DNA of 64,000 nucleotides from Gammaproteobacteria bacterium (GTDB taxonomy: Bacteria; Pseudomonadota; Gammaproteobacteria; Nitrococcales; Nitrococcaceae). This document shows positions 37,299-59,233 of this stretch, in pieces. A program made the translations under genes and the position numbers. The stretch covers positions 1 to 64,000 of the forward strand of contig JAUILK010000003.1 of assembly GCA_030433275.1 (NCBI GenBank), written 5' to 3'. Each line of letters starts with the position of its first letter. Within the stretch, counting starts at the first letter, position 1. The notes under the pieces are model-generated. The model was not told the DNA's origin. It made no database searches and saw nothing but the letters and a program-made list of their open reading frames with translations.

Positions 37299-37346
37299 AG
37301 CGCTTTGCCGAAACCGGCCTCTGCGGGCCGAGTTGAGCAAAGCGCT
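37299..37346. other. Stem-loop with 10-bp arms
   Basis: AGCGCTTTGC and GCAAAGCGCT are perfect inverted copies that enclose about 28 bases, which contain a smaller CGGCC...GGCCG stem. It lies between the terminator of the DUF932 gene and the structured region. Its role is unknown; a small RNA or transfer-origin element is possible. Confidence 0.4.
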
Positions 37347-37357
37347 AATGCGATGAA

Positions 37358-37384
37358 ACCACCCGGAGCATTGCTCCGGGTGGT
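37358..37384 (-). terminator. Strong hairpin downstream of the DUF932 gene
   Basis: ACCACCCGGAGCA and TGCTCCGGGTGGT form a perfect 13-bp inverted repeat around one base, 29 bases past the stop of the DUF932 gene. The T-run after it on the minus strand is short (TTTCAT). Confidence 0.6.
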
Positions 37385-37412
37385 ATTGGTTGAGATAGAT
37401 GAGAACCGCTGG

Positions 37413-38207
37413 TCATGCAGCCTTTAGATCCGCGAAACGCTGCGCGAGACGCCACAGCGCCCGGTTGAGCCGCACGTCCTCGCTCACGGAGTTGACGGCG
37501 CGAGTACGCACCCGTCGTCCGTTGCGGGCACGTCCTCTGAGGGAGCCTCGCAGCAGGTTCTCCTGGACCCGGCTGAAAGTTGCCCAGAGATTGTCGCCCT
37601 CATCCTCGCGGCGGCGCGCACCGAGGATTTGATCGGTGCGCACTGGGCTTGCCTTGGGCCAGTCCTCCCCGTACCGCACCTCGAGCGCGGCCTCGGCGAA
37701 CAGGCTTTGTTCCTTGCTGTCGAGCTGGGTGTCGCGAAAGGCCTCGACCGAAGCGGCGATTTGGGGAACTTCATCAAGGAGCTCGTAGGAGCCCTCGATG
37801 ATGTCGTCCACCACGTTTTTGCCGTGGCGCACGCGGATGCCGCCGAAGTCGCCGATCGGGCAGACCATGCCGTTGGAACACACCAGACGAAAGAGGCCTG
37901 CGTCGAGCTGATACGCAGAACTGCGGTCATGGCTGTTGGTAAGCACGAGCTCGGCCACGGAATCCCCCACCTCGATGGGAGAATAGTTGCGGCGAAAGCG
38001 CAACATGTGACGAGCCACATGCTGGCGCTGTGAGTCACGCACGCGGGTCTGCTGAGCTCTCACCGGCAACCAGCCTTGCTCGCGAAAGGCCTCGACCAGG
38101 GTCATGGTGGGCACAAAGCCATAACGCTCGGATACGTTGCCGTCCGGCGCTTGCGCGAATACCGACGGAGCCAAGCGCATGATCTGATCGTTGGATAAAA
38201 CGGACAT
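37413..38207 (-). CDS. DUF932-family mobile-element protein
   Basis: A 264-residue protein of the phage/plasmid DUF932 (YfjQ-like) family: RYGFVPTMTLVEAFREQGW, RDSQRQHVARHMLRFRR and AGLFRLVCSNGMVC, which is the family signature. Members are common cargo of integrative elements; their biochemical role is unknown. AGGAGA lies 6 bases before the ATG, at the end of a leader repeat shared with the DUF3577 gene. Confidence 0.88.
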   Translation of the reverse strand: MSVLSNDQIMRLAPSVFAQAPDGNVSERYGFVPTMTLVEAFREQGWLPVRAQQTRVRDSQRQHVARHMLRFRRNYSPIEVGDSVAELVLTNSHDRSSAYQLDAGLFRLVCSNGMVCPIGDFGGIRVRHGKNVVDDIIEGSYELLDEVPQIAASVEAFRDTQLDSKEQSLFAEAALEVRYGEDWPKASPVRTDQILGARRREDEGDNLWATFSRVQENLLRGSLRGRARNGRRVRTRAVNSVSEDVRLNRALWRLAQRFADLKAA

Positions 38208-38213
38208 GGTGTA

Positions 38214-38366
38214 TCTCCTATAGACGGGAAACACCATGCCCCTTGGGGAGATGACGCTCCCCAAGAGTGGGTAGGAAGGTGCTGCCGATGACAGCGGGTG
38301 GTGAAGATTGGATCGAGCCTCGAAAGGCGCCTCTGTTCGCGATCCGTAGACGCTTTAAGGGCCGCT
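38214..38366 (-). repeat. Leader repeat copy A (5' of DUF932)
   Basis: About 153 bases nearly identical to 39349-39502. Both lie directly before a minus-strand gene, end in the ribosome site TAGGAGA, and contain a 9-bp stem (CTTGGGGAG / CTCCCCAAG, 38242-38265) just upstream of it. The shared block points to a common 5' untranslated leader that controls translation. Confidence 0.8.
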
Positions 38367-38424
38367 TATTCAACCCAAGCGGTCAGGAGTCTTTACAAAT
38401 GAACTGGTCAAGATTCATGAGCTC

Positions 38425-38649
38425 TCATGCCAGTCTCAAATCGGCTGACATGGCCCGCGCTATTTTCATGGCCGTAATGGGCTTGGTGGGTATCACCCAC
38501 CGCTCACCGACTGGGCACACAGTAATGAATAGTGTCTGCGCTTCCAGATTGTATTTTGCAGTAACGCGACCGCTCCACGCCGATACGTGCTTTCTTAAAG
38601 CGTTTGGATGCATGCGGATGTCAACAACATGGGGCTTGGCTTCAGCCAT
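38425..38649 (-). CDS. Small conserved-looking protein of the mobile element
   Basis: A 74-residue basic protein (AKPHVVDIRMHPNALRKHV, then TVCPVGERWVIPTKPITAMK). I do not recognise the family. It lies between the DUF3577 and DUF932 genes on the same strand, 108 bases after the former. GAGGAGAAACCTC lies just before the ATG at 38649, which supports translation. Confidence 0.55.
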   Translation of the reverse strand: MAEAKPHVVDIRMHPNALRKHVSAWSGRVTAKYNLEAQTLFITVCPVGERWVIPTKPITAMKIARAMSADLRLA

Positions 38650-38757
38650 GAGGTTTCTCCTCAAGCGTCGGGAGACACCGCCTCCCGCCGGGAAACAACG
38701 TTTCCCGGCGAGCAGATGATTTCGAATTGAATCGGAGGGGGGTGGACTCCCCGGTGG

Positions 38758-39342
38758 TCAAAAGGCTTGCGGCAGCCGCCAGACTTTGGCTTGACCGTCG
38801 AAGCAATAGCCGGATTGCTTCAGCTTACGCTTGCGAGCCTCGAAATCCGGATCGGTCTTTGACAGTTGAACCAAGACCGGCATTGCAGTCGTTGTCGGCT
38901 GTTCTAGCTCGGCGTTGGTGTCAAAGTCACGGTTGTGCGGCTCCGGCGCCTCTCCGTGCTCAGACTCCGTGTCGGCCCTATAGACGAGCTGGCCATCGAC
39001 CTTGATCCAGCCGATGTAGAGCAGGCGTGCCTTGAGGCTGACGCCTGTTTCGCCGGCACGTTCGCCCTTGGAATAGATGAATGTGTCTGCATACAGATCA
39101 CCGAGCCGGAAACCGATCAATACCTTGCGGTCTTCAACGGACGCCTGATACTGCTGTACCAGTTCGATGGCATTAGAGCCGCTGACACGGCAATCGAATC
39201 GCGTGTAGTTGACGTTGTCGGTCGCACCGTGCAACGCCGCGATGTCGCAGGCCCAGAATGACTGCCCGTTCTTGGGCTTGACCTCGCGAATGCGATTCAA
39301 GTACCCGAGGCCCTGCGTGTGAAGGTCGAAGTATTCAGACAC
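38758..39342 (-). CDS. DUF3577-family integrative-element protein
   Basis: A 194-residue protein starting at GTG with AGGAGA 7 bases upstream. YFDLHTQGLGYLNRIREV, FWACDIAALHGATDNVNYTR and FDCRVSGSNAIELV are the DUF3577 hallmarks. This family is almost confined to integrative conjugative elements of gamma- and betaproteobacteria. The C-terminal 40 residues (LSKTDPDFEARKRKLKQSGY) look like a small extra domain. The gene is preceded by leader repeat copy B. Confidence 0.85.
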   Translation of the reverse strand: MSEYFDLHTQGLGYLNRIREVKPKNGQSFWACDIAALHGATDNVNYTRFDCRVSGSNAIELVQQYQASVEDRKVLIGFRLGDLYADTFIYSKGERAGETGVSLKARLLYIGWIKVDGQLVYRADTESEHGEAPEPHNRDFDTNAELEQPTTTAMPVLVQLSKTDPDFEARKRKLKQSGYCFDGQAKVWRLPQAF

Positions 39343-39348
39343 GGTATT

Positions 39349-39502
39349 TCTCCTAATAGACGGGAAACACCATGCCCCTTGGGGAGATGATGCTCCCCAA
39401 GAGTGGGTAGAAAGGTGCTGCCGATGACAGCGGGTGGTGAAGATTGGATCGAGCCTCGAAAGGCGCCTCTGTTCGCGATCCGTAGAGGCTTCAAGGGCCG
39501 CT
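39349..39502 (-). repeat. Leader repeat copy B (5' of DUF3577)
   Basis: Second copy of the leader at 38214-38366, with only a few differences, including one base in the loop of the hairpin at 39378-39401 (stem conserved). It ends in TAGGAGA before the GTG start of the DUF3577 gene. Confidence 0.8.
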
Positions 39503-39707
39503 ATCTACCTAGCGGTAGGGTGTTCATGTATGAGCGAAGCACGCTTGTGCGTCTATGTCAATCGACCCTGCCCGTTATCCGCATCCTCCGCGTGCCGCAT
39601 GCGCGCATGGACCCGATGACCGTGCCGATGATTCCCACCTTCAGCAGCCGATCATTCATGTTTCCCTGTAGTTTTTTTCAAACCTAGAAACACGACTGGG
39701 ATCAATG

Positions 39708-39977
39708 TCAGTCGGCCCGCAAGACGGTATCGTAGTCTTGCCCACCGTAGAATACGCCCAGGATCGTCACGGCCTCATCGTCGACCGTAAACGCGCTAGC
39801 GGCGCGGCACCGGAAGCCGGTGATTCGCACTCCGGGCCTTATGTCATCGCGCTTCGCGCCGCGTAACGGAAAGGTCTCCAGGCCCTCGCAGTAGGCCACG
39901 ATGGAGCCGACGAAATCCTCGGCGCGTGGGGAATAATCAACACCGCACCTACGAATGTTCCTTTGTCGCCCGCTCAT
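39708..39977 (-). CDS. parE: ParE/RelE-family toxin
   Basis: An 89-residue type II toxin: YSPRAEDFVGSIVAYCEGL, PGVRITGFRCRAASAF and ILGVFYGGQDYDTVL with the typical C-terminal strand. ParE relatives poison gyrase; I infer this from the antitoxin class. The ATG at 39977 overlaps the antitoxin end by 29 bases, as usual in such pairs. Confidence 0.85.
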   Translation of the reverse strand: MSGRQRNIRRCGVDYSPRAEDFVGSIVAYCEGLETFPLRGAKRDDIRPGVRITGFRCRAASAFTVDDEAVTILGVFYGGQDYDTVLRAD

Positions 39978-40230
39978 GCAGCGCCGCCAGTCGAGTGCGG
40001 ACCTCGGCGGCGCCGATGCGGCTGGCAGGATCGGCCTTCGCCTCATCGTACGCGGCCGCGACCTCCGTTCGCAGCCAGGATTCCAGCACGCGCTCACGCG
40101 CCAGCAGGGCTCTCAAGCCATCGCGGATGACCTCGCTTTCCGTCGCGTACTCGCCGGATGCGACCTTGGCCTTCACGGCCTCTGCCATTTCATCGGGCAG
40201 GGTGATGCTGAATTGTCGAGTAGTGCGCAT
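39949..40230 (-). CDS. parD: ParD-family antitoxin
   Basis: A 93-residue protein with an N-terminal ribbon-helix-helix (TTRQFSITLPDEMAEAVKAK, then ATESEVIRDGLRAL) and a C-terminal toxin-binding tail. It should repress its own promoter at the palindrome just upstream. Confidence 0.9.
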   Translation of the reverse strand: MRTTRQFSITLPDEMAEAVKAKVASGEYATESEVIRDGLRALLARERVLESWLRTEVAAAYDEAKADPASRIGAAEVRTRLAALHERATKEHS

Positions 40231-40250
40231 GGGGAATCTTCCTCACAGCA

Positions 40251-40269
40251 AGTAGGATTAAATCCTACT
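40251..40269 (-). promoter_or_regulatory. ParD operator palindrome
   Basis: AGTAGGATT-A-AATCCTACT is a perfect 19-bp dyad 20 bases before the parD start, a suitable autoregulatory operator. Confidence 0.65.
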
Positions 40270-40339
40270 CTGATTCCGCGCGGCGCGCCATCGCGTTCCC
40301 GTGACCTGGATGTAACGTGCGCTGTGCACAGGCGTTTTG

Positions 40340-40580
40340 ATCGCACGGAATATGTCAGGACTCAGCTGCGCTCGCCGCCGTGGCGCAGACCAAGCCATCC
40401 TGGCGCATCGCAAGCGGGTCTACGAAAAGGCCAAGGCCTCACGCCCTTAACGCTGGTTTGGCGAGATGAGGAACTGGGAACCGATCGCAGGGGTGTGGCT
40501 GAACCCGCCCAACGGGGTCCGCACCGGCGAGCGGAGCCCGCGAAAAGTGGCCTAAAAAATCGGACAACTACGTTGACAAA
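40340..40580 (+). pseudogene. IS3-type transposase OrfB, C-terminal remnant
   Basis: Short frames read HRKRVYEKAKASRP and then, after a stop, EMRNWEPIAGVWLNPP, which resembles the tail of IS3-family OrfB proteins. TCGGACAACTACGTTGACA at the end looks like an IS terminal repeat. No catalytic region remains. Confidence 0.4.
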
Positions 40581-40585
40581 CGCCG

Positions 40586-40975
40586 TTATCGAATGAGCTC
40601 CACGTCCACTGCGGCCGCGGCCGCTATATCGTGCCAAGCGGTGTCAGCGGTGAGCGCGGGTGTTTGCCGAGCTTTCGCCAGGGCAAGACACGCGCGATCG
40701 CCGAGCGATAGCCCAGCCGATCGTGTGACCGATCGAAGTTGCGCGGTTGCCAAGGCCTGGTCGTAATCGAAGGGCTGAATCGAGAGCTGCAGCGTGTCGA
40801 TGACGGTTTCAGCGACGTCGCCTGGCATATCAAACGATAGAAGGCGAGCTGCGACCTCGGAGATGTTAATCGCCGACACCAAGGCGCCCGGCAAGTGTTC
40901 CTCGACCTGATCGCTGCCCGGCTCGTCGAAGATCACTGCGAGAATGGCCGAGGCGTCCAGCACGACATCAGCCAT
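40586..40975 (-). CDS. vapC: VapC-like PIN-domain toxin
   Basis: A 129-residue PIN ribonuclease with the acidic residues VVLDASAILAVIFDE, NISEVAARLL, LSLGDRACLALA and LTADTAWHDI. It overlaps the antitoxin gene by 8 bases. PIN toxins cut specific RNAs, often initiator tRNA. Confidence 0.9.
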   Translation of the reverse strand: MADVVLDASAILAVIFDEPGSDQVEEHLPGALVSAINISEVAARLLSFDMPGDVAETVIDTLQLSIQPFDYDQALATAQLRSVTRSAGLSLGDRACLALAKARQTPALTADTAWHDIAAAAAVDVELIR

Positions 40976-41255
40976 GGCGGGATCCACCCATCTCTTCGTC
41001 TTCTTGCGCCGCTTCGCTGCGACGTTCCTCTATCAGTTGATCCGACGCAAGACCGCTCGGCGGTTTATAGGGCGAGGCGAGCTCTCGCACGCGTTTTAGG
41101 GCGTGCCGAGTCGTAGTGATCCGTATCTCATCATCGACCAATGTTAAAACGAGGTGACCGGATCCAGACAGGCCTAAAGCGCGACGCATGTCCGCCGGCA
41201 GATTCATACGACCGGATTCGGATATAGGGATCGTACGCTTTTTAGTAGTAGACAT
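40968..41255 (-). CDS. vapB: VapB-like AbrB-fold antitoxin
   Basis: A 95-residue protein with an AbrB/SpoVT swapped-hairpin domain (ISESGRMNLPADMRRALGL). The C-terminal charged part (EERRSEAAQEDEEMGG) would bind the toxin. An inverted repeat at its start is the probable operator. Confidence 0.88.
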   Translation of the reverse strand: MSTTKKRTIPISESGRMNLPADMRRALGLSGSGHLVLTLVDDEIRITTTRHALKRVRELASPYKPPSGLASDQLIEERRSEAAQEDEEMGGSRHG

Positions 41256-41287
41256 TTGTACCGCTCAAGTTTTGATACAGGTACAAA
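41255..41287 (-). promoter_or_regulatory. VapB operator inverted repeat
   Basis: TTTGTACC (41255-41262) and GGTACAAA (41280-41287) are perfect 8-bp inverted copies separated by 17 bases, at the vapB start codon. It fits autoregulation by a VapBC complex. Confidence 0.6.
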
Positions 41288-41392
41288 GTTTATTATGAGT
41301 AGAGCGAAACGGCTAGGGCCAATCGTGCGGCATGACGCTGGCGCATTAGTCTCTTACGGATTCCGCAACCCAGTGTCGCGCTAGCCTGGCGT

Positions 41393-41599
41393 ACCCAGCG
41401 GCGTAACGTCTCGGCCGTGCAGCCGATTTTGTCCGCAATGGAGCAGATCGCCACCCACTGCGATTCGTGCTCGGCCTGGTGTTCGAACACTAGCTGAACA
41501 GTACGCTCCCGTACTTCCGGTGAATACGTCGTTGACGTTTCATGGCTCCATCCTCTCAAGAGTTGGAGCCTCCGGGAAAGTCGGGACGGTTCAGTTTGC
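41393..41599 (-). pseudogene. IS3-family OrfA, 5' fragment
   Basis: The frame reads TSTTYSPEVRERTVQLVFEH, then SIADKIGCTAETLRRWVRQA, the helix-turn-helix half of an IS3 OrfA, and loses similarity after about 41393. Upstream, TGAACCGTCCCGACTTTCCC (ending at 41599 on the minus strand) is a typical IS3 left end. OrfB and the right end are missing. Confidence 0.75.
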
Positions 41600-41625
41600 C
41601 GAGGAGCGGATTCCCCCGGAATTTC

Positions 41626-41748
41626 TGTCACATTATGAGCCTGATGAACCCTTTGCATATCTTAAATTAAATGACGTGTTAAGTGACAAATTTTGACGAC
41701 TTGAACTTTCCGGCTCACACTGTCACATAAACGAACGTATATGTGACA
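41626..41748 (+). promoter_or_regulatory. Probable res site of the serine resolvase
   Basis: Several TGTCACAT/GTGACA half-sites lie before the resolvase gene: TGTCACAT at 41626, GTGACA at 41683, and the inverted pair TGTCACATA (41721-41729) and TATGTGACA (41740-41748) with 10 bases between. This spacing of paired half-sites is what a Tn3-type resolvase binds at its recombination site, and it would repress its own gene there. Confidence 0.55.
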
Positions 41749-42380
41749 TGTATAAGATCTTGATTGGTTACATGCGGGTATCCAAGGCGGACGGCTCCCA
41801 AGCCACCGACTTGCAGCGCGACGCGCTAAGCGCCGCCGGCGTCGAACCGGCGCATCTTTATGAAGATCAGGCGTCCGGTAAACGCGAGGACCGCCCCGGC
41901 TTGACGAGCTGCCTGAAAGCACTCCGGCCAGGAGACACTTTGGTCGTGTGGAAGCTGGACCGACTTGGGCGCGACCTGCGCCATCTGATCAATACCGTTC
42001 ATGACCTGACCGGACGCGGCATCGGCCTGAAGGTGCTGACCGGCCATGGTGCGGCCATCGACACCACGACTGCCGCTGGCAAGCTAGTCTTCGGCATCTT
42101 CGCAGCTTTGGCCGAATTCGAGCGCGAGCTGATCACCGAGCGCACCATAGCTGGGCTGGCGTCAGCGCGGGCACGCGGCCGAAAGGGTGGCCGGCCGTTC
42201 AAGATGACGGCCGCCAAGTTGCGCCTGGCGATGGCCAGCATGGGGCAACCAGAAACCAAGGTCGGCGACTTGTGCCAGGAGCTTGGGATTACCCGGCAGA
42301 CGCTCTACCGGCATGTGTCTCCCAAGGGCGAACTACGGCCAGACGGAGTAAAGCTGCTCTCCCGCAGTTCAGCTGCATAG
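41748..42380 (+). CDS. tnpR: Tn3-family serine resolvase
   Basis: A 210-residue serine recombinase. The N-terminal catalytic domain has GYMRVSKADGSQ with the active serine, and VVWKLDRLGRDLRHL with AEFERELITERT. The C-terminal helix-turn-helix is VGDLCQELGITRQTLYRHV. It would resolve cointegrates at the site directly upstream. No matching Tn3 transposase lies nearby; the Tn3 fragment at 32857 belongs to a separate, delimited element. Confidence 0.92.
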   Translation: MYKILIGYMRVSKADGSQATDLQRDALSAAGVEPAHLYEDQASGKREDRPGLTSCLKALRPGDTLVVWKLDRLGRDLRHLINTVHDLTGRGIGLKVLTGHGAAIDTTTAAGKLVFGIFAALAEFERELITERTIAGLASARARGRKGGRPFKMTAAKLRLAMASMGQPETKVGDLCQELGITRQTLYRHVSPKGELRPDGVKLLSRSSAA

Positions 42381-42797: not shown

Positions 42798-43265
42798 ATG
42801 ACGGAGACAAAGAACATATTTATCAGCCACGTTCATAAGGACGATCAAGGCTTGCAGAAGCTGAAGGATCTGTTGGCTCCAAAAGGCATGGATATCCGGG
42901 ACTCCTCTATCCACACTGGCAAATTCAACAATGCTACAGATCCTAACTACATCAAAACTCAAATTCTGGCTCCTGCAATCAATTGGGCTGGAACTTTTGT
43001 TTGTTATGTGTCGCCGCAGACCAAGGAGAGCGAATGGGTTAACTGGGAGATTGAATATGCGGCCAAGCAGGGGAAACGCATTGTCGGCGTGTGGGAGCAT
43101 GGCGAGAAAGAATGTGATCTCCCTACCGCGCTACAGGAGTATGCCGACGCCTTGGTCGGATGGAACGGCAATGCGATTGTGGACGCGATCAACGGCAAGG
43201 ACAGCTGGGAGAAGCCAGATGGCAGCCCCTGTGCTCCAGTACCACTCAAGCGCCATCCTTGCTAA
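42798..43265 (+). CDS. TIR-domain protein, first gene of the defence operon
   Basis: A 155-residue protein consisting of one TIR-like domain: NIFISHVHKDDQGLQKLKDL at the start, TFVCYVSPQTKESEWVNWEI in the middle, where the glutamate (about 84) fits the catalytic residue of TIR NAD-cleaving enzymes, and KRIVGVWEHGEKECD. Such stand-alone TIR proteins make NAD-derived signals in Thoeris and related systems. The C-terminal 20 residues are proline- and lysine-rich. Its stop overlaps the next ATG by one base (TAATG), so the genes are coupled. Confidence 0.85.
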   Translation: MTETKNIFISHVHKDDQGLQKLKDLLAPKGMDIRDSSIHTGKFNNATDPNYIKTQILAPAINWAGTFVCYVSPQTKESEWVNWEIEYAAKQGKRIVGVWEHGEKECDLPTALQEYADALVGWNGNAIVDAINGKDSWEKPDGSPCAPVPLKRHPC

Positions 43266-43891
43266 TGGCCTGCATCTATTCATACGTAGTGCGCTATGAC
43301 AGCGGGTTTGCACCCAACCCGTTTTACGGTTATTGCACGCTCGCGACGTGCAAGCCAAAAATCAGGCGCCAAGCGAAAGTTGGCGACTGGGTGGTCGGTA
43401 CCGCCAGTAACGATCGTAGTATTAGGCGCGGAGGACATCTCGTCTATGCCATGTGCGTGACTGAGACAATGACGTTCGACGACTACGCAACCGACCCGCG
43501 GTTTGAAGCCAAGAAGCCATTTCGCATGGGCAGCCGCAAGCAAAGCTGTGGCGACAATATCTATTTTCGCAATGCGCCTGATCGTGATTGGCTCCAGCGT
43601 GATTCATTTCATTCGCTTTATGATGGAACAATCAACCCACAACATGTGACGCGAGACACGAGTGTTAACCGTGTTCTGATTAGCAGTGATTTTATTTATT
43701 TAGGCGGTACGGGCCCGGCATTTCCGGACGATCTTTGTGATCGAAACGGTAGATCTCTATGCAAGAGAGGTATTGGCAGCTCTTGTTTCGATGACCCTCA
43801 ACTCATCGAAGACCTAGAGCGCTGGGTACGTAATTTCGGGGGCAGTGGTTACCAGGGACCGCCACAAGAATGGATTTCGCTTCGTGAGTAA
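43265..43891 (+). CDS. Nmad2-like (nucleotide-modification-associated) protein
   Basis: A 208-residue protein resembling the Nmad2 domain, a family first noted in gene neighbourhoods of phage and bacterial base modification. Conserved-looking blocks are IYSYVVRYDSGFAPNPFYGY, CTLATCKPKIRRQAKVGDWV, and DNIYFRNAPDRDWLQRDSFH. Histidine-, aspartate- and cysteine-containing segments fit a nucleotide or nucleic-acid-handling enzyme, but the reaction is unknown. The assignment is from memory of the family. It lies between the TIR and MazG genes with overlaps or tiny gaps. Confidence 0.7.
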   Translation: MACIYSYVVRYDSGFAPNPFYGYCTLATCKPKIRRQAKVGDWVVGTASNDRSIRRGGHLVYAMCVTETMTFDDYATDPRFEAKKPFRMGSRKQSCGDNIYFRNAPDRDWLQRDSFHSLYDGTINPQHVTRDTSVNRVLISSDFIYLGGTGPAFPDDLCDRNGRSLCKRGIGSSCFDDPQLIEDLERWVRNFGGSGYQGPPQEWISLRE

Positions 43892-43895
43892 GCCA

Positions 43896-45023
43896 ATGAA
43901 CCAAAATACAAGTTTGCTTCTGTTGTCGGATTATGCCGCTCAGATCGCCGACACAGATGTGCTTGATCCAGCGGATATAGGTCCAATCCTGCAAGGCATC
44001 TTCGGTGAAGTCGGCGGCATCATGTCGACAGCGAAGAAGCACATTCGAGAGAAATCAGCCTACCCTGGATTCAAGCTGGCCGCTGAGGAAGAGTTTGGCG
44101 ATACGCTCTGGTATCTCGCTGCGCTATGCAGGCGGTTAAACCTTTCTCTGGATGAACTGTTTGTTGAGGCAACAAGCAGCGAAGGCTTTAGGGCAGTCGG
44201 TTCAGCAAGCGATACGGTTGAAGGCGCATTCGCTCATGTCGCAATACCGATGTCCACGGATTCGGTAGACACGACACTTTTTAGACTCGGGCGCTCAACG
44301 GCGGCATTGCTAGAAAGTGCCCCTGAGCGCGCAAAAATTGTGGGATTTGCAGGTGATTATCTCCACGCGCTTCATGCAGCAAAATTGACCTTTGCCGATG
44401 TTGCGCGGAGCAACTTACGAAAGGCCCGCGGGGCATTTCTTGAGCCACAACCTGAGGATTTGATTGACTTTGATGCCGATTTCGGAATTGAGGAGCAACT
44501 TCCAAGGGCATTCAAAATTCGCGTCAATCAACGAGATAGTGGCAGAAGCTACCTTCAATGGAATGGTGTTTTCATCGGTGATCCCTTGACGGACAATATT
44601 GCCGATTCAGATGGATATCGGTTCCATGATGTTTTCCATCTTTCATACGCGGCAATTCTTCATTGGTCGCCTGTTATGCGTGCTTTAATCAAGCATAAAC
44701 GCAAGAGCAGGCCTGAGTACGATGAGACACAGGATAGTGGCCGTGCCATTGTGGTTGAAGAGGGGTTAACCGCTTGGATTTTTACTAGAGCTAAGGAGCT
44801 TAATTTCTTCGAAGATCAAGAGCATATTTCATTGGGAATGCTTAAGACTATTGGTGAATTCGTGGCTGGCTACGAGGTATCGAAATGCTCACTTAAGCTC
44901 TGGGAGCGGGCCATTCTTGAAGGCTATGAGGTGTTCCGACGTCTTAGAGCCGCCCAAGGCGGCTGGATTATTGGTGATCGAGCGCTTCGCACGATCCGCT
45001 ATGAGCCACTTGAGTCGACCTGA
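43896..45023 (+). CDS. MazG-like NTP pyrophosphohydrolase with MazG_C domain
   Basis: A 375-residue two-domain protein. Residues about 20-90 are a MazG-type all-helical domain (GPILQGIFGEVGGIMSTAKK, then AAEEEFGDTLWYLAALCRRL), which removes pyrophosphate from NTPs or dNTPs. Residues about 215-370 match the MazG C-terminal domain with FHDVFHLSYAAILHWSPVMR and AIVVEEGLTAWIF, whose histidines and glutamates may bind metal. The IS1595 element enters at the last codons, changing the end from LESKK-stop to LEST-stop. Without it the stop would overlap the next ATG as ATGA. Confidence 0.82.
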   Translation: MNQNTSLLLLSDYAAQIADTDVLDPADIGPILQGIFGEVGGIMSTAKKHIREKSAYPGFKLAAEEEFGDTLWYLAALCRRLNLSLDELFVEATSSEGFRAVGSASDTVEGAFAHVAIPMSTDSVDTTLFRLGRSTAALLESAPERAKIVGFAGDYLHALHAAKLTFADVARSNLRKARGAFLEPQPEDLIDFDADFGIEEQLPRAFKIRVNQRDSGRSYLQWNGVFIGDPLTDNIADSDGYRFHDVFHLSYAAILHWSPVMRALIKHKRKSRPEYDETQDSGRAIVVEEGLTAWIFTRAKELNFFEDQEHISLGMLKTIGEFVAGYEVSKCSLKLWERAILEGYEVFRRLRAAQGGWIIGDRALRTIRYEPLEST

Positions 45024-46079
45024 TTAGCGTCGTCTTTCAGCAAGCGAACACGGGCACGTCACGGGGTTTTCGCTCGGGCCAGGGCGGGCAGCGCGCGGCG
45101 GCGACCAGTGCCCGCGGCACCAGCGCTTCCAGCCGGAAGCGGCGGTTGAACCGCCAGGCGGCCTCACCGAGGTAGCGCTCGGCGTACTTGGAGAAGCGAA
45201 AGGCATGATAGGTCCCATCGAGTGCGCGCTTGACGTTGCCGAGCACGATATTCGCCCAGCGCGCGCCCTCAGCCTCTGTCGCAGCGCGGCCGCCGCCGGC
45301 CTCGATGACCGTGTGGGCATGGCCGAGCGGCACCACGGCGCGGAAGGCACCCAAGCCGTCGCTGTAGACCTCGGCGTCGGGGGCCAGCCGCCGCCGCGCC
45401 CAGTTGGTGAGTGCGGCGGTGGTAAAACCGCTCACCGGCTCGATGACCGCCATACCCGGCCGACCGAGCTCATTGGTCGACACGGCGATCACGAAAGGGC
45501 GCTTGTTCTCCGAGCCCCGGCCGGGCTTGCCGCCGCTGCGCTCGCCGCCGAGATAGGCGTCGTCAAGCTCCACGAACCCATCGAGTCGACGCGGAGCTTC
45601 ACGCTCGGCCATCGCCTCCATGAGCTTGTGCTTCATCCGCCAGGCGCTGCGATAGCACACGCCCAGGTGGCGGGTAAGCTCCAAGGCGGCAAGGTTGGTC
45701 TTCGACTGCGTGAGCAGGTACATCGCGAGAAACCAACTCGTCAAAGGCAACTTGGTGTTCGCGAACACACTACCTGCATGCAGGCTCGTCTGGCGGTGGC
45801 AGACACTGCACTGCCAGTACCGCTGGCCATGGCGCACGAAGCGGCTGTGCATGCTTGCCGCGCACTGCGGGCAGATAAAACCGTGTGGCCAGCGCGCCTT
45901 GCGCAGCGCGCGCTCACACGCCGCCTCACTGCCGTAGCGCTGCATAAATTCGAGCAAGGACAGACCGCGTTGGAACTGGATGGGGTTCATGGCCATAGGG
46001 GAACCTCCCTCAAACAATACCTCGGCTATCCCCAGTGTCACATGGGCCGCGACTTTGCTGAAAGACGACGCTAATCAGG
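45019..46079. mobile_element. IS1595-family insertion sequence, 1,061 bp
   Basis: Perfect 25-bp inverted repeats at both ends begin CCTGATTAGCGTCGTCTTTC. They are flanked by the 8-bp duplication TGAGTCGA (45011-45018 and 46080-46087), the length known for IS1595. Removing the element and one copy rejoins the MazG gene end with the UDG gene start. Confidence 0.95.
45037..45996 (-). CDS. IS1595-family transposase (ISXO2-like)
   Basis: A 319-residue transposase. An N-terminal zinc ribbon (FICPQCAASMH, WQCSVCHRQT) is followed by the DDE-type ISXO2 domain with FVELDDAYLGGERSG, VYSDGLGAFRAV and the C-terminal NVKRALDGTYHAF and AWRFNRRF. I chose the ATG at 45996, which has GGGAGG about 8 bases upstream. 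It is intact, transcribed against the host operon. Confidence 0.93.
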   Translation of the reverse strand: MAMNPIQFQRGLSLLEFMQRYGSEAACERALRKARWPHGFICPQCAASMHSRFVRHGQRYWQCSVCHRQTSLHAGSVFANTKLPLTSWFLAMYLLTQSKTNLAALELTRHLGVCYRSAWRMKHKLMEAMAEREAPRRLDGFVELDDAYLGGERSGGKPGRGSENKRPFVIAVSTNELGRPGMAVIEPVSGFTTAALTNWARRRLAPDAEVYSDGLGAFRAVVPLGHAHTVIEAGGGRAATEAEGARWANIVLGNVKRALDGTYHAFRFSKYAERYLGEAAWRFNRRFRLEALVPRALVAAARCPPWPERKPRDVPVFAC

Positions 46080-46091
46080 TGAGTCGAAGAA

Positions 46092-46751
46092 ATGAGTTTA
46101 CTACACCCATTTGTAAACGCTGTTGCCGCCTTGCAGTTCGAAAATTGTTTTAATCCGTACGTAGATCGTTGCGAAGTACACGATCAAGAGGATGCCCCCT
46201 ATCTCCGGGCAACTTCTTTATCGGCTATGGTGGAAAGTGCTGCGTGTGAGCCAGTCGACGCGATATGGGTTGGTCGAGACCTCGGTTACCGTGGTGGACG
46301 GCGGACAGGCCTTGCTCTGACTGACGACGTTCATATCGATAGACATGCCAAGCGCTGGGATCTTTCTGCCAAACGGCCAACAGTCGGTACAGCCGTCGCC
46401 GAGCGGACTGCTGCGGTTGTCTGGAACATACTGGATCTGATTGATGCCCGTATATTCTTGTGGAACGTTTTTCCACTCCATCCCCATGAATTGGACGAAC
46501 CATTCAGCAATCGTCAGCATAACGCTCGCGAGCGTCGTGCTGGCGAGGAAGTACTCCAAAACCTGATAGCCTTATTGAGGCCGGAGAGGATCATCGCGAT
46601 CGGCAACGAGGCGGCTGCCTCAGCCAGCCACGTTGTGGATGCTGTGCCCGTGATCTGCGTTCGACATCCAAGCTATGGCGGGCAAACCCGGTTTCTACAC
46701 CAAATTGCTGAACTTTACGAGATCGCCCCACGGACTAGATCGCTACTTTAG
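46092..46751 (+). CDS. Uracil-DNA-glycosylase-superfamily protein
   Basis: A 219-residue protein of the UDG fold. Motif 1 is WVGRDLGYRGGRRTGLALTD, similar to the G-E-x-(P/L)-G-(Y/H)-x-G-x-R-x-T-G motif of family members but with arginine in place of the usual glutamate. The middle has FLWNVFPLHPHE and motif 2 is VRHPSYGG. Base excision from DNA is the family role; the altered motif may mean a changed substrate. A plain ATG at 46092 would overlap the MazG stop in the IS-free operon. Confidence 0.78.
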   Translation: MSLLHPFVNAVAALQFENCFNPYVDRCEVHDQEDAPYLRATSLSAMVESAACEPVDAIWVGRDLGYRGGRRTGLALTDDVHIDRHAKRWDLSAKRPTVGTAVAERTAAVVWNILDLIDARIFLWNVFPLHPHELDEPFSNRQHNARERRAGEEVLQNLIALLRPERIIAIGNEAAASASHVVDAVPVICVRHPSYGGQTRFLHQIAELYEIAPRTRSLL

Positions 46752-46822: not shown

Positions 46823-47320
46823 ATGACGAGAAGGGTTTTCTTTAGCTTTCATTTCGCGAACGACTTCTGGCGCACTCAGCAGGTGCGCAATATAAATTCT
46901 CTCGAAGGTCAAAAGCTCTGCTCTTCAAATGATTGGGAAGAGGTCAAGCGTAAGGGCAAGGAGTCGATCAAGAAGTGGATCGATGACCAGATGCATGGTA
47001 AGAGCTGTGTCGTTATCCTAGTCGGTGCCGAGACGGCTAATCGACCATGGGTAATCCACGAAATATCTAAGGGCTGGAACGATAAGCGGGCGGTCTTAGG
47101 TATCCGTATCGACAAACTGCTTGATTCCAGCGGCCGCCCGTCCGTGGCAGGACCGAATCCATTTTCTAAGGTTACTTTTACAGGCTCGGCACGTAGTCTT
47201 TCCGAGGTGGCGCCGCTTAAGGTTCCGACCGGAACCGATAGCAAGGCCGCCTATGCCTCTATCGCCAACAATATTGAGGGATGGATCGAAGAAGCGATTC
47301 GTATACGCGCTAACAGTTAA
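46823..47320 (+). CDS. ThsB-like TIR-domain protein (DUF1863 type)
   Basis: A 165-residue protein with the N-terminal RRVFFSFHFANDFWRTQQVR and the block SCVVILVGAETANRPWVIHE, typical of the DUF1863/MTH538 TIR-like family to which Thoeris ThsB belongs. The glutamate in VIHEISKGWN (about 79) is the likely catalytic residue. Relatives make cyclic ADP-ribose isomers on phage infection. It follows the UDG gene by 71 bases, the largest gap in the operon, in AT-rich sequence that could hold an internal promoter. Confidence 0.85.
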   Translation: MTRRVFFSFHFANDFWRTQQVRNINSLEGQKLCSSNDWEEVKRKGKESIKKWIDDQMHGKSCVVILVGAETANRPWVIHEISKGWNDKRAVLGIRIDKLLDSSGRPSVAGPNPFSKVTFTGSARSLSEVAPLKVPTGTDSKAAYASIANNIEGWIEEAIRIRANS

Positions 47321-47341: not shown

Positions 47342-48502
47342 GTGAGCATATACGAGATAGGTCTCCTAGGCGATGTGACGGAGGTTGACCGTGACACGCT
47401 TGTCGCAACTATAGTGAAGCTCATTGCCGATTTCGATTTGGAGGTTGGCCGCGAGGTCATGATCCGGAACGCAGGTTCCTTCGCGGAACGGAATGGGCAT
47501 GCGGCAACCGCGGTGGCCTACTTTGGAGGCTCAACACAAGCTGATCAGGACTTGGCGCGGCGCGCCCTCACCGCAAGCCTGCCAGTGATCCCTACGGTAC
47601 CGGCCGATGGAGATTTTAGCGCCATGGTCCCTTCTTTTCTTCATGGGGCAAATGGTCTTTACCGCCGCGCCGACGATCCTGAGATGCGGGAACTAGCGGT
47701 AGGGCTCTTGGAATGCCTCGGCCTCCTCCGACGGCAGCGCCGAGTATTCGTCAGCTACCGACGAGTGGAATCTCGCATTGCTGCTGTCCAACTCCATGAT
47801 TTGCTGAGTGGACGCGGTTGTGATGTTTTTCTTGATACGCACGATATCCGTCCAGCCGAGCCATTCCAAGAGGTTCTCTGGCATCGGCTCTGTGACTCCG
47901 ATGTGATGGTGATGCTCGATACACCAACGTATTTCGAGAGCAAGTGGACACGCCAAGAACTTGGCCGTGCCCGGGCGAAAGAAATCCACGTACTCCGGAT
48001 AGTCTGGCCCGATCATACGCCAAGCAAGCAAACGGATTTCGCTGAGACAATCTACCTGGATCAAGCGGAACTTACTGGTTATGACGGCCCGATTCTCGAT
48101 GAGGTTGCCGATCAGATAGTCCTCACGATTGAGAGCCTACGGAGTCGCAGCATCGCCTCCCGGTACATGTCGATTACGGGGAAGCTGCGCGCAGAAGTTG
48201 AGAAAATCGGTGGTGAGCTTGACGGCGTCGGCGCGCACCGCGCAATTGCGCTGCGCTTGCCGGACAATAAAAAACTATGGGCTTACCCGATCGTTGGCAT
48301 TCCCACAGCAGACCTGCTCAACGATGTAGTTAATAAAGCCCATCGAGCAGATCAGCGTGGGATGCCAATCTTAGTTTACGATCACATTGGTATCCGGGAT
48401 CAGTGGATGGCGCACCTCAAATGGCTTGACGAGAACATTCGCGCAGTTCGCGCCATTCGGGTTGCTGAGGCAGCGTGGACACTTGCCGCTTGGGAGAGCT
48501 GA
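47342..48502 (+). CDS. TIR-domain protein with extra N- and C-terminal domains
   Basis: A 386-residue protein starting at GTG, with GAGG 9 bases upstream. Residues about 131-270 are a TIR domain: RRVFVSYRRVESRIAAVQLH, GCDVFLDTHDIRPAEPFQ and FESKWTRQELGRA, with the glutamate (about 205) in the catalytic place. Residues 1-120 hold an unassigned domain (VAYFGGSTQADQDLARRAL), possibly nucleotide-binding. Residues 275-386 form another unassigned part (PILVYDHIGIRDQWMAHLKW). It ends 2 bases before the SLOG gene and is probably its functional partner. Confidence 0.8.
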   Translation: MSIYEIGLLGDVTEVDRDTLVATIVKLIADFDLEVGREVMIRNAGSFAERNGHAATAVAYFGGSTQADQDLARRALTASLPVIPTVPADGDFSAMVPSFLHGANGLYRRADDPEMRELAVGLLECLGLLRRQRRVFVSYRRVESRIAAVQLHDLLSGRGCDVFLDTHDIRPAEPFQEVLWHRLCDSDVMVMLDTPTYFESKWTRQELGRARAKEIHVLRIVWPDHTPSKQTDFAETIYLDQAELTGYDGPILDEVADQIVLTIESLRSRSIASRYMSITGKLRAEVEKIGGELDGVGAHRAIALRLPDNKKLWAYPIVGIPTADLLNDVVNKAHRADQRGMPILVYDHIGIRDQWMAHLKWLDENIRAVRAIRVAEAAWTLAAWES

Positions 48503-48504
48503 GT

Positions 48505-49155
48505 ATGACCGACGCTATCTTCCTATCCGCCGGCGTTCCCGACCCCAAGCGAGGACCGGAATATGCTAGGACTGCTGATGCAGTCGCAATCACAGCAGCA
48601 GTGTCAGCGCTCGTTCATGTGACACTTGGGCGGCGTTTGCTTGTTTGGGGCGGTCATCCTGCCATTACACCAATGATTTGGGTAGTAGCTGAGGGGCTAG
48701 AAGTCGACTATGGGAGTTGGGTACAACTCTACCAGAGCCGGTATTTTGAGGATGAATATCCCGAAGACAATCAGCGGTTCCAGAACCTCACTTTAACCGA
48801 TGATGTCGGTTGCGACCGTGAACATAGCCTTCGACTGATGCGAGAACGGATGTTCTCGGATTTCAACTTTACGGCGGCGGTATTCATTGGAGGGATGGGC
48901 GGTATCGTTCAGGAGTTTGATCTGCTTCAGCAGATGCACCCTCAAGCGACATTACTGCCAGTGATCTCGACAGGGGGTGCGGTTCACGATGTAGCGCAGC
49001 GTATGGGGAATATCCCGTATGACCTTCGCGATGACTTGGATTACGTCGCGCTGTTTCATCGACACCTTGGGGTTTCTGTCAAGGAGATGCGCTACCAGCG
49101 TCCGACAGAGCAGCCGCTGGCGGTTGCGGACCGGTTTTACCGTCCTAAGGCCTGA
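48505..49155 (+). CDS. STALD-type SLOG-domain protein
   Basis: A 216-residue Rossmann-like protein with the SLOG pattern: AIFLSAGVPDPKRGPEYART, LLVWGGHPAITPMIW and FIGGMGGIVQEFDLL, the glycine-rich loops that bind nucleotide-derived ligands. The STALD branch is known to travel with TIR and Sir2 effectors. SLOG domains in Thoeris ThsA sense the TIR-made signal, so this protein is the likely receptor or a nucleotide-processing partner. It is last in the operon. Confidence 0.8.
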   Translation: MTDAIFLSAGVPDPKRGPEYARTADAVAITAAVSALVHVTLGRRLLVWGGHPAITPMIWVVAEGLEVDYGSWVQLYQSRYFEDEYPEDNQRFQNLTLTDDVGCDREHSLRLMRERMFSDFNFTAAVFIGGMGGIVQEFDLLQQMHPQATLLPVISTGGAVHDVAQRMGNIPYDLRDDLDYVALFHRHLGVSVKEMRYQRPTEQPLAVADRFYRPKA

Positions 49156-49335: not shown

Positions 49336-49962
49336 TTAATTTATCTTCTCCGTGGTTGATGGGTTGGTCGGGGCGTAGGCGTAGTTGCCTGGCTGTGGGT
49401 CGTTAAGGAGATTCTCGGCCATGCTGGTGACTCCATCATCGGGGTTGATGGTGACTTGCTCGGGCGGGCATCGCGCGAGCGGTCGGCCTTTGGGATAGCG
49501 CTCGGGGTGCGCTGCGTAGTAGGCATCCAGGGCGGCTTGTCGTCGGGCGCGGACGGCCTCAACGCGGCCGTGGAAGACATCGGCGGGGGTATAGAAGGCC
49601 AGCCCCTCGTGGGGGCGATCTTTGTAGGCCGCGATGAACTCGCTCATCCATGCCCGGGCGTGCTCGATGCCCTCAAAGCGCCCGGGATAGCCGGGACTGT
49701 ACTTCAGCGTCTTGAACTGCGACTCGCTATAGGGGTTGTCGTTGGACACCCGTGGGCGGGAGTAGCTGCGGCGCACGCCGAAGGCATCGAGCAACTCCCG
49801 GTAGCTGTGGGCGATCATGGGCGCGCCACGGTCCTGATGGATGATGAGCTCACCCGGGGCGATGGCGTAGGCGTTGAGCGCCTCGCGAAAGAGGTGGCGA
49901 GCGAGCGCGGCGTTCTCCTTACGGCTGATCATCCAGGCCACCGGGTAGCGGCTGTAGAGATC
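49336..49962 (-). pseudogene. IS3-family OrfB, C-terminal part
   Basis: The frame continues the split OrfB as LDLYSRYPVAWMIS, IIHQDRGAPMIAH (second aspartate) and SNDNPYSESQFKTLKYSP (glutamate), and ends at 49336. The joined protein would be a regular DDE integrase with this part after the part at 51131-51569. Confidence 0.82.
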
Positions 49963-49964
49963 TA

Positions 49965-51128
49965 GTGTACCGTTCTATTCTTAATGGAACTTAGCGTGGC
50001 TGAGTCATTCCAACGCATTATCCTCTGTGGCATTGGATCAAGCGCATGCGAGTTGCCCCACCGATCGTGTTGACCGACAAGGAGCAGAGCGAGCTGACCC
50101 GAGTGTCGCGTTCGCGCCGTAGCAGCGTGCGCTTGGCGCAGCGCGCGCGGATTGTGCTGCTGGCCGCGCAGGGTATTCAGAACAAGGACATCGCCGAGCA
50201 GCTGGGTATCGGACGTGTGCAAGTCGCGCGCTGGCGCAATCGTTATGCGCAAGGAGGCCTCCAAGGCATCGAGCGGGACTTGCCGCGCGGCGCGCCGGCG
50301 CTGAAGGTGGACGTGAATCAGCTGGTCGAGCTGACAACGCAAACCAAGCCCAAAGCAGCCACGCACTGGAGCACGCGCAAGATGGCAGCTGTGCTGGGGG
50401 TCAGCGCCAGCACCGTCATGCGCCACTGGCAGGCCAACGGCTTGAAGCCTCATGTCGTGCGTGGCTTCAAAGTCTCGCGCGACCCGCAGTTCGTCGAGAA
50501 GCTCGAAGACATTGTCGCTCTATACGTGTCTCCGCCAGAGCATGCGCTGGTGCTGTGCTGCGACGAGAAGAGCCAAGTGCAGGCATTGGATCGCACGCAG
50601 CCGGGGCTGCCGCTGAAGAACGGCCGCGCCCAGACGATGACACACGACTACAAACGCCACGGCACGACCACGCTGTTCGCGGCACTGAACGTGCTCGACG
50701 GCAAGGTCATCGGTCAATGCCAGCCGCGCCATACCCACGCCGAGTGGCTGAAGTTCCTGCGCAAGATCGATCGCCAGACTCCGAAAGAGAAGACCTTGCA
50801 CTTGATCGCCGACAACTACGCCACGCACAAGCATCCGGCGGTCCAGAAGTGGCTGGCGAAGCATCCGCGGTTCAATATGCATTTCACACCGACTTCGGCG
50901 TCGTGGCTCAACATGGTCGAGCGCTTCTTCCGCAATCTCACGGCCGAGCGGCTGCGCCGCGGTGTCTTCACCAGCGTGCCTGAACTGGTGGCGGCTATCG
51001 ATGAATATGTTGCCCACCACAACAACCACCCCAAGCCGTTCATCTGGACCAAGAGCGCACGCGACATCCTGCAGAAGGTCATTCGCGCCAATAGCCGCTT
51101 AAGTTCCAAACAGAACGAAACGCTACAC
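49965..51128. mobile_element. IS630-family insertion sequence, 1,164 bp
   Basis: It lies between TA at 49963-49964 and TA at 51129-51130, the target duplication of IS630/Tc1 elements. The ends are imperfect inverted repeats of about 38 bp (GTGTACCGTTCTATTC... and GTGTAGCGTTTCGTTC... on the other strand). Excision with one TA restores the IS3 OrfB frame. Confidence 0.9.
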
Positions 51129-51131
51129 TAG
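50046..51131 (+). CDS. IS630-family transposase
   Basis: A 361-residue DDE transposase with an N-terminal double helix-turn-helix (NKDIAEQLGIGRVQVARWRN) and catalytic residues in LVLCCDEKSQVQALD, LHLIADNYATHKH and WLNMVERFFRNL. The last sense codon ends the element; the TAG stop is made of the TA target duplicate plus one host base. Translation from 50046 (ATG) seems likely; no strong ribosome site is seen. Confidence 0.93.
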   Translation: MRVAPPIVLTDKEQSELTRVSRSRRSSVRLAQRARIVLLAAQGIQNKDIAEQLGIGRVQVARWRNRYAQGGLQGIERDLPRGAPALKVDVNQLVELTTQTKPKAATHWSTRKMAAVLGVSASTVMRHWQANGLKPHVVRGFKVSRDPQFVEKLEDIVALYVSPPEHALVLCCDEKSQVQALDRTQPGLPLKNGRAQTMTHDYKRHGTTTLFAALNVLDGKVIGQCQPRHTHAEWLKFLRKIDRQTPKEKTLHLIADNYATHKHPAVQKWLAKHPRFNMHFTPTSASWLNMVERFFRNLTAERLRRGVFTSVPELVAAIDEYVAHHNNHPKPFIWTKSARDILQKVIRANSRLSSKQNETLH

Positions 51132-51569
51132 GATCTGATAGAGATTGAGATAGACCCGGGGCGTGGTCGTTGGCAGCCGCGAGATGTCCCAACTCCACGC
51201 CTGATGCGGAGCACGGGCGATGATCCGCGGTACGCTGTGGCGTTGCGCAGGACGCTGCGCCCGGCGCTCGCGGCTCTGAGCATCCTTGCGCAGCAATCGA
51301 TAGATCGTGGAGACCGAAGGCATGGGGCAGCCGCGGTTGAGCTCACGGGCGTGGATCACGCGCACGCTGGCGTCCTGATAGGGCTCGCTGTTGACCCGCT
51401 CAAGCGCGGCGCGCCGCTCGTGCTCGCTCAATTGCCGGGGCTGTTGGCGAATTGCCGTGGAAGAGCGCTGACGGAGCCGACGCCGATAGGTGCCCGTGCG
51501 TGATAAGCCCAGCGCCTCACAGGCGCGGCGGTGTGGCAGCTCGGCCGGTCGCTGCTCGAGAAGCCTCAT
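51131..51569 (-). pseudogene. IS3-family OrfB, N-terminal part
   Basis: The frame from 51569 reads LPHRRACEALGLSRTGTYRR, VIHARELNRGCPMPSVSTIY and WSWDISRLPTTTPRVY, with the first catalytic aspartate, and is cut by IS630 after NLYQI. The remaining part is at 49336-49962. Confidence 0.82.
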
Positions 51570-51876
51570 TGCGATGACTCGCTCTGTGCGTCCTCGAGCA
51601 GCGCCAAAAACTTTTTTTGCAGATCCACCATGTCCTCGGCAACTTGGGCCCGCCGCTCTTCGGCTCCAGCCCCTGCGTGCCGGCCTCGCTCAGCGTCCGG
51701 CGCCACTCAGCCAGCTGGCCTGCATACAGCGCATTGCGCCGCAGCCAGCCCCCTTTCTCGCCACGGGGCAAAGCATCGTACTCGGCGAGTAGCCGCTGCT
51801 TGTCAGAAGCGCTGAACCGCCGTCGGGTGCGCCGCTCCAGGCTCGGCTCGGTGGGGATCTCGTTGGTATCGTTCAC
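51517..51876 (-). pseudogene. IS3-family OrfA, frameshifted
   Basis: A GTG start with GAGGAGG 8 bases upstream opens RRTRRRFSASDKQRLLAEYD and LRRNALYAGQLAEWRRTLSE. After SGGPKL the frame moves: the expected leucine-zipper helix VAEDMVDLQKKFLALLEDA is found in a neighbouring frame. A frameshift near 51650 therefore breaks OrfA, unless it marks a recoding site. Confidence 0.7.
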
Positions 51877-51951
51877 GCTCGTAGCCTCCTCATTCAGTGC
51901 CCGAATGTTACATAAGAAACGCATCGGTCACTGTCGGATACGAGGTTGACA

Positions 51952-52488
51952 CTTAGGGGATCGTCCGCTTTTGGCCGGATACCGACCGCCGAGACGCGTC
52001 GGCGCGCTGATCAGCCTAAGCACCTCACAGCTGGTTGCTTGCCGACCCTGAGCCGCCCCCTTGTCAAGCAACGTTTCCTCTGCGCCATCGCAGCGGCAGC
52101 GTGGAACGCTTCCTCTTCCGAGTCGGCCCCTGGGAAAGTGCCGGAACACCTTTGCCAATTTGTGATGTATGCCAAAAAGCTGTAATGCTTGGGGACTTAT
52201 CGTGGTTTTCGGCGAAAGGTCGCAGGGTACTGGGATCCTGTACCACAACCTCTGTGGGCAGACGACCGATTGGTACAACTCCACGGTCAGCTACGGATGG
52301 AAGGTGGATGCAGTGGCAATGACGGTGACACTCTCGGGGCCCACAAGGACTCGCTCTGACACCAGCGAACTGCGGGGTCAAGTGTACAAGCTGTATTTGC
52401 ATTCCCATCTCTGAGTCCGCTAATGAGTTCCATACGCGGGGTGTCCGGTGTCGGGCTTCTGCGCTGATGCGCGCTGCGGAGGGTGAAG
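51952..52488. other. Intergenic stretch before the helicase gene
   Basis: No gene is recognised in 537 bases between the IS3 right end and the helicase start. Short frames on both strands have no family features. It should carry the helicase promoter; none stands out. Confidence 0.4.
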
Positions 52489-59230: not shown

Positions 59231-59233
59231 AGA

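What the first reader, a model, noticed from the sequence alone, without database searches (positions are those of the whole stretch)
45011..46095. IS1595 sits exactly at the MazG/UDG junction and hides an ATGA overlap
With IS1595 and one TGAGTCGA removed, the MazG gene ends CTT GAG TCG AAG AAA TGA and its stop overlaps the UDG start (ATGA). With the IS present the protein ends LEST instead of LESKK, so the coding region is nearly unharmed, but 1.06 kb of antisense-oriented DNA now divides the operon. The downstream UDG, TIR and SLOG genes may be silenced or driven by IS promoters.
Basis: seen in the sequence. Interest (0 to 1): 0.6.

Follow-up and report, generated by a model that had tools for sequence, protein, structure and literature searches.

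The report
Jumping gene splits a Thoeris-linked defence operon
A small jumping gene has landed exactly where two overlapping genes of a conserved bacterial anti-virus-type gene cassette meet; the insertion itself is ordinary, but the cassette it exposed, which travels with exchangeable Thoeris immune effectors, looks little studied and worth testing.

Summary
A 1,061-bp IS1595-family element (45019-46079, 25-bp perfect inverted repeats, 8-bp target duplication TGAGTCGA) sits at the very end of a MazG/MazG_C gene. The joined flanks restore ...LESKK* and an ATGA overlap with the UDG gene. Relatives confirm it: 46 of 54 loci have UDG directly after MazG on the same strand, 31 with the same 4-nt overlap, none with an insert there; the nearest (L005, 82% identical) has ATGA and the same seven-gene order. 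The altered C-terminal residues are not conserved.

Loss of translational coupling to UDG is likely. Silencing of the downstream TIR and SLOG genes is not well supported: they are a type III Thoeris set that in 30 of 31 relatives carrying ThcA lies upstream or on the other strand, so it should have its own promoter. No promoter-like site was found reading from the IS into UDG.

The larger result is the cassette: TIR-Nmad2-MazG-UDG, complete in 50 of 54 loci, beside type III Thoeris ThcA in 31 and type I ThsA in 5 others. Predicted folds (YTH-like, dUTPase/MazG-like) suggest uracil or modified-base surveillance feeding TIR signalling. That mechanism is inference.

The parts
42798..43265 (+). 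TIR1, ThsB-like TIR protein, 155 aa, first gene of the cassette
   Evidence: Pfam ThsB_TIR 77.4 bits; PADLOC ThsB PDLC00418 298.6 bits; coordinates
43265..43891 (+). Nmad2 protein, 208 aa; its ATG overlaps the TIR1 stop by 1 nt
   Evidence: Pfam Nmad2 205.3 bits on residues from 43316; predicted YTH-like fold
43896..45023 (+). MazG/dUTPase-like + MazG_C protein, 375 aa as found (ends LEST*), 376 aa (LESKK*) at the joined empty site
   Evidence: Pfam MazG_C 274.2 bits; N-terminal fold like dimeric dUTPases/MazG
45011..45018 (.). left target-site duplication TGAGTCGA
45019..46079 (-). IS1595-family insertion sequence, 1061 bp, 25-bp perfect terminal inverted repeats
45037..45996 (-). IS1595 transposase (probable ATG at 45996; frame open from GTG 46041)
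46014..46041 (-). promoter-like site in front of the transposase, reading away from UDG
   Evidence: consensus match only; no more sites than in shuffles
46080..46087 (.). right target-site duplication TGAGTCGA
46077..46082 (+). AGGTGA formed by IS end plus target duplication, a possible new Shine-Dalgarno 9 nt before the UDG ATG
   Evidence: effect depends on the 16S tail length assumed
46092..46751 (+). UDG-superfamily protein, 219 aa; ATGA 46092-46095 is the hidden overlap
   Evidence: Pfam UDG 33.4 bits, cut-off 24.3; alignment A1
46823..47320 (+). TIR2, second ThsB-like TIR protein, 165 aa
   Evidence: Pfam ThsB_TIR 87.9 bits; PADLOC PDLC00433 225.6 bits
47342..48502 (+). ThcB4, type III Thoeris TIR protein, 386 aa
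   Evidence: NCBIfam NF058526 459.3 bits, cut-off 220
48505..49155 (+). ThcA, type III Thoeris SLOG (LD_cluster3) protein, 216 aa
   Evidence: NCBIfam NF058525 257.3 bits, cut-off 110; Pfam LD_cluster3 254.5 bits

Best explanation
Shown: an IS1595-family element inserted, probably recently (perfect repeats and duplication), into the last codons of the third gene of a conserved four-gene cassette TIR1-Nmad2-MazG-UDG that lies in front of a type III Thoeris set (TIR2-ThcB4-ThcA). MazG changes only in unconserved terminal residues; UDG and everything after it stay open. Inferred: the main effect is that ribosomes finishing MazG can no longer restart at the overlapping UDG start, and that UDG mRNA must now cross 1.06 kb of antisense DNA, so UDG is lowered while TIR1, Nmad2 and MazG are kept. 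The Thoeris III genes are probably transcribed on their own and largely spared. Inferred, weaker: the intact cassette is a Thoeris-linked surveillance module in which Nmad2 (YTH-like fold) reads a modified base, the MazG/dUTPase-like and UDG proteins act on uracil or modified pyrimidines in nucleotides and DNA, and TIR1 makes or boosts the nucleotide signal read by an exchangeable effector (ThcA or ThsA).
For: Insertion anatomy and family. Empty junction in relatives: 31 of 46 same-strand junctions with the 4-nt overlap, 0 of 46 with an insert, nearest relative L005 with ATGA and the same seven-gene order. Weak native Shine-Dalgarno at UDG (median -2.2 kcal/mol, 45 relatives). MazG C-terminus unconserved. 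Thoeris III set independently placed: convergent in 26, upstream in 4, downstream same strand in 1 of 31 relatives with ThcA. Cassette complete in 50 of 54 loci. ThsA in 5 of 54 loci, 4 of them directly after UDG. Partner/arrangement needs at least 9 changes on the MazG tree over 49 labelled rows. ThcA is rare in general: 2 of 369 genomes of the window's class, one of them the window's own. Folds: Nmad2 to YTH domains, Z 7.9-8.8, all 50 rows shown; MazG residues 8-182 to dimeric dUTPases, Z up to 11.2.
Against: No expression data. The IS end creates AGGTGA before UDG (-9.5 against -2.4 kcal/mol with a 13-nt 16S tail), which could restore translation; with a 9-nt tail the gain is small (-3.9 against -2.2), the spacing is long, and the predicted local fold is more stable when the IS is present (-10.2 against -6.5). 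No promoter-like site was found before TIR2 either, so an own Thoeris III promoter is inferred only from gene order. Foldseek found no match at E <= 0.001 for either model, and the YTH Z lies near the level (about 8) that the tool warns may mean only a common arrangement. Presence or absence of any Thoeris partner needs only 3 changes on the tree, and 18 of 54 loci show no ThcA or ThsA in the held flanks (some are short contigs). Defence genes cluster in islands anyway.
Confidence: 0.65

Rival explanations
1. The insertion is close to neutral for the whole operon: transcripts read through the IS, the new AGGTGA starts UDG translation, and all seven proteins are made.
For: All seven frames are intact; AGGTGA from IS end plus duplication; no terminator-like site on the plus strand inside the IS.
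Against: Over 1 kb of antisense DNA usually invites polarity (established knowledge, not tested); long spacing and a more stable local fold at the new site.
Confidence: 0.3
2. The insertion knocks out everything from UDG to ThcA, perhaps selected because the defence genes are costly.
For: UDG-TIR2-ThcB4-ThcA lie in one direction with short gaps (71, 21 and 2 nt); no promoter-like site found before TIR2; two other relatives carry IS insertions in genes of the same kind (Nmad2 in L018, ThcA in L021).
Against: In 30 of 31 relatives with ThcA the set is not downstream on the same strand, so it is normally its own unit; all frames downstream of the IS are open.
Confidence: 0.2
3. Assembly artefact: IS and flanks joined wrongly.
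For: Draft genome of 104 contigs.
Against: Perfect 8-bp duplication and 25-bp repeats; single full copy in the genome; flanks are continuous in relatives.
Confidence: 0.02

Closest known systems
IS1595 family insertion sequences
   Same: Zinc-ribbon plus ISXO2-like DDE transposase over curated cut-offs, perfect terminal repeats, 8-bp duplication
   Different: Nothing notable; no near match in 72,556 plasmid records
Type III Thoeris (NCBIfam ThcA, ThcB4)
   Same: ThcA and ThcB4 over equivalog cut-offs, with a further ThsB-like TIR
   Different: Here preceded by the TIR1-Nmad2-MazG-UDG cassette; the one other ThcA genome in the class sample (G323) has no MazG_C match
Type I Thoeris (ThsA SIR2-STALD)
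   Same: Relatives L033-L036 have ThsA (about 511-515 bits, PDLC00407) directly after UDG
   Different: Not present in the window operon; the cassette adds three nucleotide/DNA-base proteins
Predicted defence domains MazG, MazG-C, NMAD, UDG in DefensePredictor (PMC13092281; section 8 and passages read)
   Same: Same domain types listed as predicted, unvalidated defence genes
   Different: The held main text has no occurrence of TIR or Thoeris; the figure itself and its supplements were not available, so whether this exact cassette is drawn there is unknown
Brig1 (PMC11078745; passages read)
   Same: UDG-superfamily glycosylase with anti-phage activity, found in the vicinity of a Thoeris ThsA-like gene
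   Different: One gene suffices there, acting on glucosylated hmC; here UDG is part of a four-gene cassette and its substrate is unknown

Membership tests
IS1595 family | IS1595-type transposase (zinc ribbon + ISXO2-like domain) | tested here: met
IS1595 family | terminal inverted repeats and 8-bp target duplication (size recalled) | tested here: met
   25 of 25 bp and 8 of 8 bp identical
IS1595 family | catalytic residues and subgroup | not tested
   no residue check made
Type III Thoeris | ThcA over curated cut-off | tested here: met
   257.3 bits, cut-off 110
Type III Thoeris | ThcB4 TIR protein over curated cut-off | tested here: met
   459.3 bits, cut-off 220
Type III Thoeris | anti-phage activity and signal molecule | not testable with these tools
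   no defining paper was found or held
Thoeris ThsB (TIR1) | ThsB-like TIR domain | tested here: met
   298.6 bits to PDLC00418
Thoeris ThsB (TIR1) | catalytic glutamate | tested here: inconclusive
   E84 nearly invariant in 17 aligned rows, absent in L047; its catalytic role is assumed from memory
UDG superfamily | Pfam UDG profile over cut-off | tested here: met
   33.4 bits, cut-off 24.3
UDG superfamily | active-site motifs | tested here: inconclusive
   D63 and H192-P193-S194 invariant in 19 of 19 rows; assignment to motifs recalled
MazG / dimeric dUTPase | all-alpha NTP pyrophosphatase fold | tested here: inconclusive
   no Pfam MazG N-terminal match; Z up to 11.2 to dimeric dUTPases over residues 8-182, below the tool's caution level of about 13 for helical folds
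YTH/PUA-like readers (Nmad2) | fold | tested here: inconclusive
   Z 7.9-8.8, all 50 rows shown are YTH domains; Foldseek best hit an ASCH domain, E 0.019

The most novel reading that the evidence does not exclude
TIR1-Nmad2-MazG-UDG is an undescribed Thoeris subtype or add-on: a uracil/modified-base surveillance module in which a YTH-like reader, a dUTPase-like enzyme and a UDG-superfamily glycosylase detect or attack phage DNA with unusual bases and trigger TIR signalling to interchangeable effectors (ThcA or ThsA). The window is a natural experiment in which a jumping gene separates the glycosylase from the rest.
Probability: 0.35. Interest if true: 0.75.

Novelty: new variant of a known kind. 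Interest (0 to 1): 0.45.

Why it matters
The insertion alone is ordinary. It matters because it marks a compact cassette, shared by many proteobacteria, that joins TIR signalling genes to enzymes of nucleotide and DNA-base chemistry and pairs with two different Thoeris effectors. If the cassette senses modified phage DNA, it would supply an infection trigger for a Thoeris-type system, and the window offers a natural mutant in which one part has been set apart.

Tried and rejected
A promoter in the IS reading into UDG: none found, but the scan is weak. IS-free copy in close kin: the cassette's MazG gene is absent from the other 94 of the 95 genomes searched, so relatives had to be distant. Near matches of the IS in plasmids: none. 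MazG relatives in phages: none in 50,697 records; in plasmids 34 of 72,556 records, several with a uracil-DNA glycosylase annotated alongside, not followed further. Solved structures by sequence: none at E <= 0.1 for UDG, MazG or ThcA. The same IS in relatives: no match to the transposase or the IS in the 54 loci. A shared promoter pattern in the UDG-TIR2 gap of window and L005: none seen. Literature: 'type III Thoeris' 0 papers, Thoeris + Nmad2 0, 'Thoeris type III' 1 (a passing mention), TadIII/DadIII 2, further searches. No listed paper was seen to describe the cassette, but only listings and the named passages or sections were read. Burroughs 2015 (cited in PMC13092281 as predicting several of these domains) and Yirmiya 2025 on TIR systems (seen in a reference list) could not be read.

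Full report
What is there. At 45019-46079 lies a 1,061-bp insertion sequence with 25-bp perfect inverted repeats, flanked by TGAGTCGA at 45011-45018 and 46080-46087. Its minus-strand transposase is IS1595 family by Pfam and NCBIfam over curated cut-offs. It is the only full copy in the 3.41-Mb draft genome; one 166-bp remnant at 76% identity lies on another contig. The joined flanks give a MazG protein of 376 aa ending LESKK*, whose TGA overlaps the ATG of the UDG gene; as found, the protein is 375 aa and ends LEST*.

IS-free relatives. A scan of genome contigs (one genome for each of 84,980 species) gave 54 loci with a relative of the MazG protein. In 46 a UDG gene follows directly on the same strand; 31 of these overlap by 4 nt (30 with ATG, one with TTG), the other 15 lie between -23 and +16 nt, and none has an insert. 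The 8 remaining loci have UDG convergent (5), not detected (2) or beyond the contig end (1). The closest, L005 (titled as an Acetobacteraceae MAG), is 82% identical in MazG, has ATGA, and has the same seven genes in the same order. The terminal residues altered by the IS vary or are absent among 19 aligned sequences, so MazG is probably unharmed.

What the operon is. TIR1 (42798-43265, ThsB-like), Nmad2 (43265-43891), MazG/MazG_C (43896-45023), UDG (46092-46751), TIR2 (46823-47320, ThsB-like), ThcB4 (47342-48502) and ThcA (48505-49155) are all open. Gaps are -1, +4, (-4 at the empty site), +71, +21 and +2 nt. NCBIfam names the last two as type III Thoeris proteins. The first four form a cassette: all four are present in 50 of 54 loci (bit score over 60). 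ThcA lies within the held flanks in 31 of 54 loci (26 of the 41 with at least 4 kb on both sides): convergent downstream in 26, upstream in 4, downstream on the same strand in 1. Five further loci carry ThsA: L033-L036 directly after UDG (PADLOC and, for two of them, Pfam) and L008 upstream (32% identical, tblastn). So 36 of 54 have a Thoeris effector nearby and 18 have none seen; several of the 18 are short contigs. ThcA was found in 2 of 369 genomes of the window's class, the window's own included, and MazG_C in 4 of 369. The loci span more than that class, so the comparison is rough. On a MazG tree of 54 rows (5 with short flanks not counted; L045 left out) partner and arrangement need at least 9 changes, partner present or absent only 3. 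Repeated re-pairing is therefore supported for the kind and placing of the partner, less so for its presence.

Effect of the insertion. The native UDG start has weak pairing to the 16S tail (median -2.2 kcal/mol in 45 relatives), as expected where a start relies on coupling (coupling itself is established knowledge, not tested here). The IS end and the duplication together create AGGTGA 9 nt before the ATG. With a 13-nt tail this pairs at -9.5 against -2.4 at the empty site, matched by 2 of 45 relatives; with 8 nt, -6.8 against -2.2, matched by 3 of 45; with 9 nt, -3.9 against -2.2, matched by 17 of 45. The local fold is more stable with the IS (-10.2 against -6.5 kcal/mol), which would oppose this. 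The only promoter-like site in the IS reads away from UDG. I expect lowered UDG, unchanged upstream genes and a largely independent Thoeris III set; none of this has been measured.

What the cassette may do. The Nmad2 model (mean pLDDT 84.1) matches YTH domains at Z 7.9-8.8 in all 50 rows shown, with ASCH and further YTH domains among the weak Foldseek hits. The MazG model (85.4) matches dimeric dUTPases over residues 8-182, Z up to 11.2; Foldseek had no hit at E <= 0.001 for either. UDG keeps an aspartate (D63) and an HPS stretch in 19 of 19 rows. A reader, a dUTPase-like enzyme and a glycosylase together suggest surveillance of uracil or modified bases, wired to TIR signalling. This is inference. 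Precedents: Brig1, a UDG-superfamily anti-phage glycosylase found in the vicinity of a ThsA-like gene (passages of PMC11078745), and DefensePredictor, which lists MazG, MazG-C and a nucleotide-modification-associated domain as predicted, unvalidated defence domains and names UDG in the legend of the same figure (section 8 and passages of PMC13092281).

Verdict. The insertion is ordinary and correctly described. The cassette and its exchangeable Thoeris partners are the part worth following.

Noticed in passing
window 52483-56290: A UvrD/HelD-like helicase gene (813 aa piece, and a UvrD_C_2 piece at 55970-56290) appears split by foreign DNA around 55130-55829.
   Followed up: partly
window 49336-51924: Cluster of transposase genes and pieces (rve_3 integrase core at 49336-49941; DDE_3 type at 50046-51131) just after ThcA.
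   Followed up: partly
L018 about 650-1800: In the Acidovorax facilis relative a DDE_Tnp_1 transposase sits inside Nmad2, soon after its start.
   Followed up: partly
L021 10310-11600: In the Achromobacter pulmonis relative a two-gene transposase (HTH_Tnp_1 + rve) splits ThcA.
   Followed up: partly
window 34284-42380: TraI_2 relaxase-type gene, DUF932, DUF3577 and a resolvase suggest a mobile element next to the operon; the MazG gene is absent from the other 94 of 95 related genomes.
   Followed up: partly
window 56597-60244: A subtilase (Peptidase_S8) gene next to an AAA ATPase gene, minus strand.
   Followed up: no
L049, L051, L052, L054, L055: In these loci (Geminicoccus, Rhizobiales and others by title) UDG is turned around, convergent with MazG, so the overlap is not universal.
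   Followed up: partly
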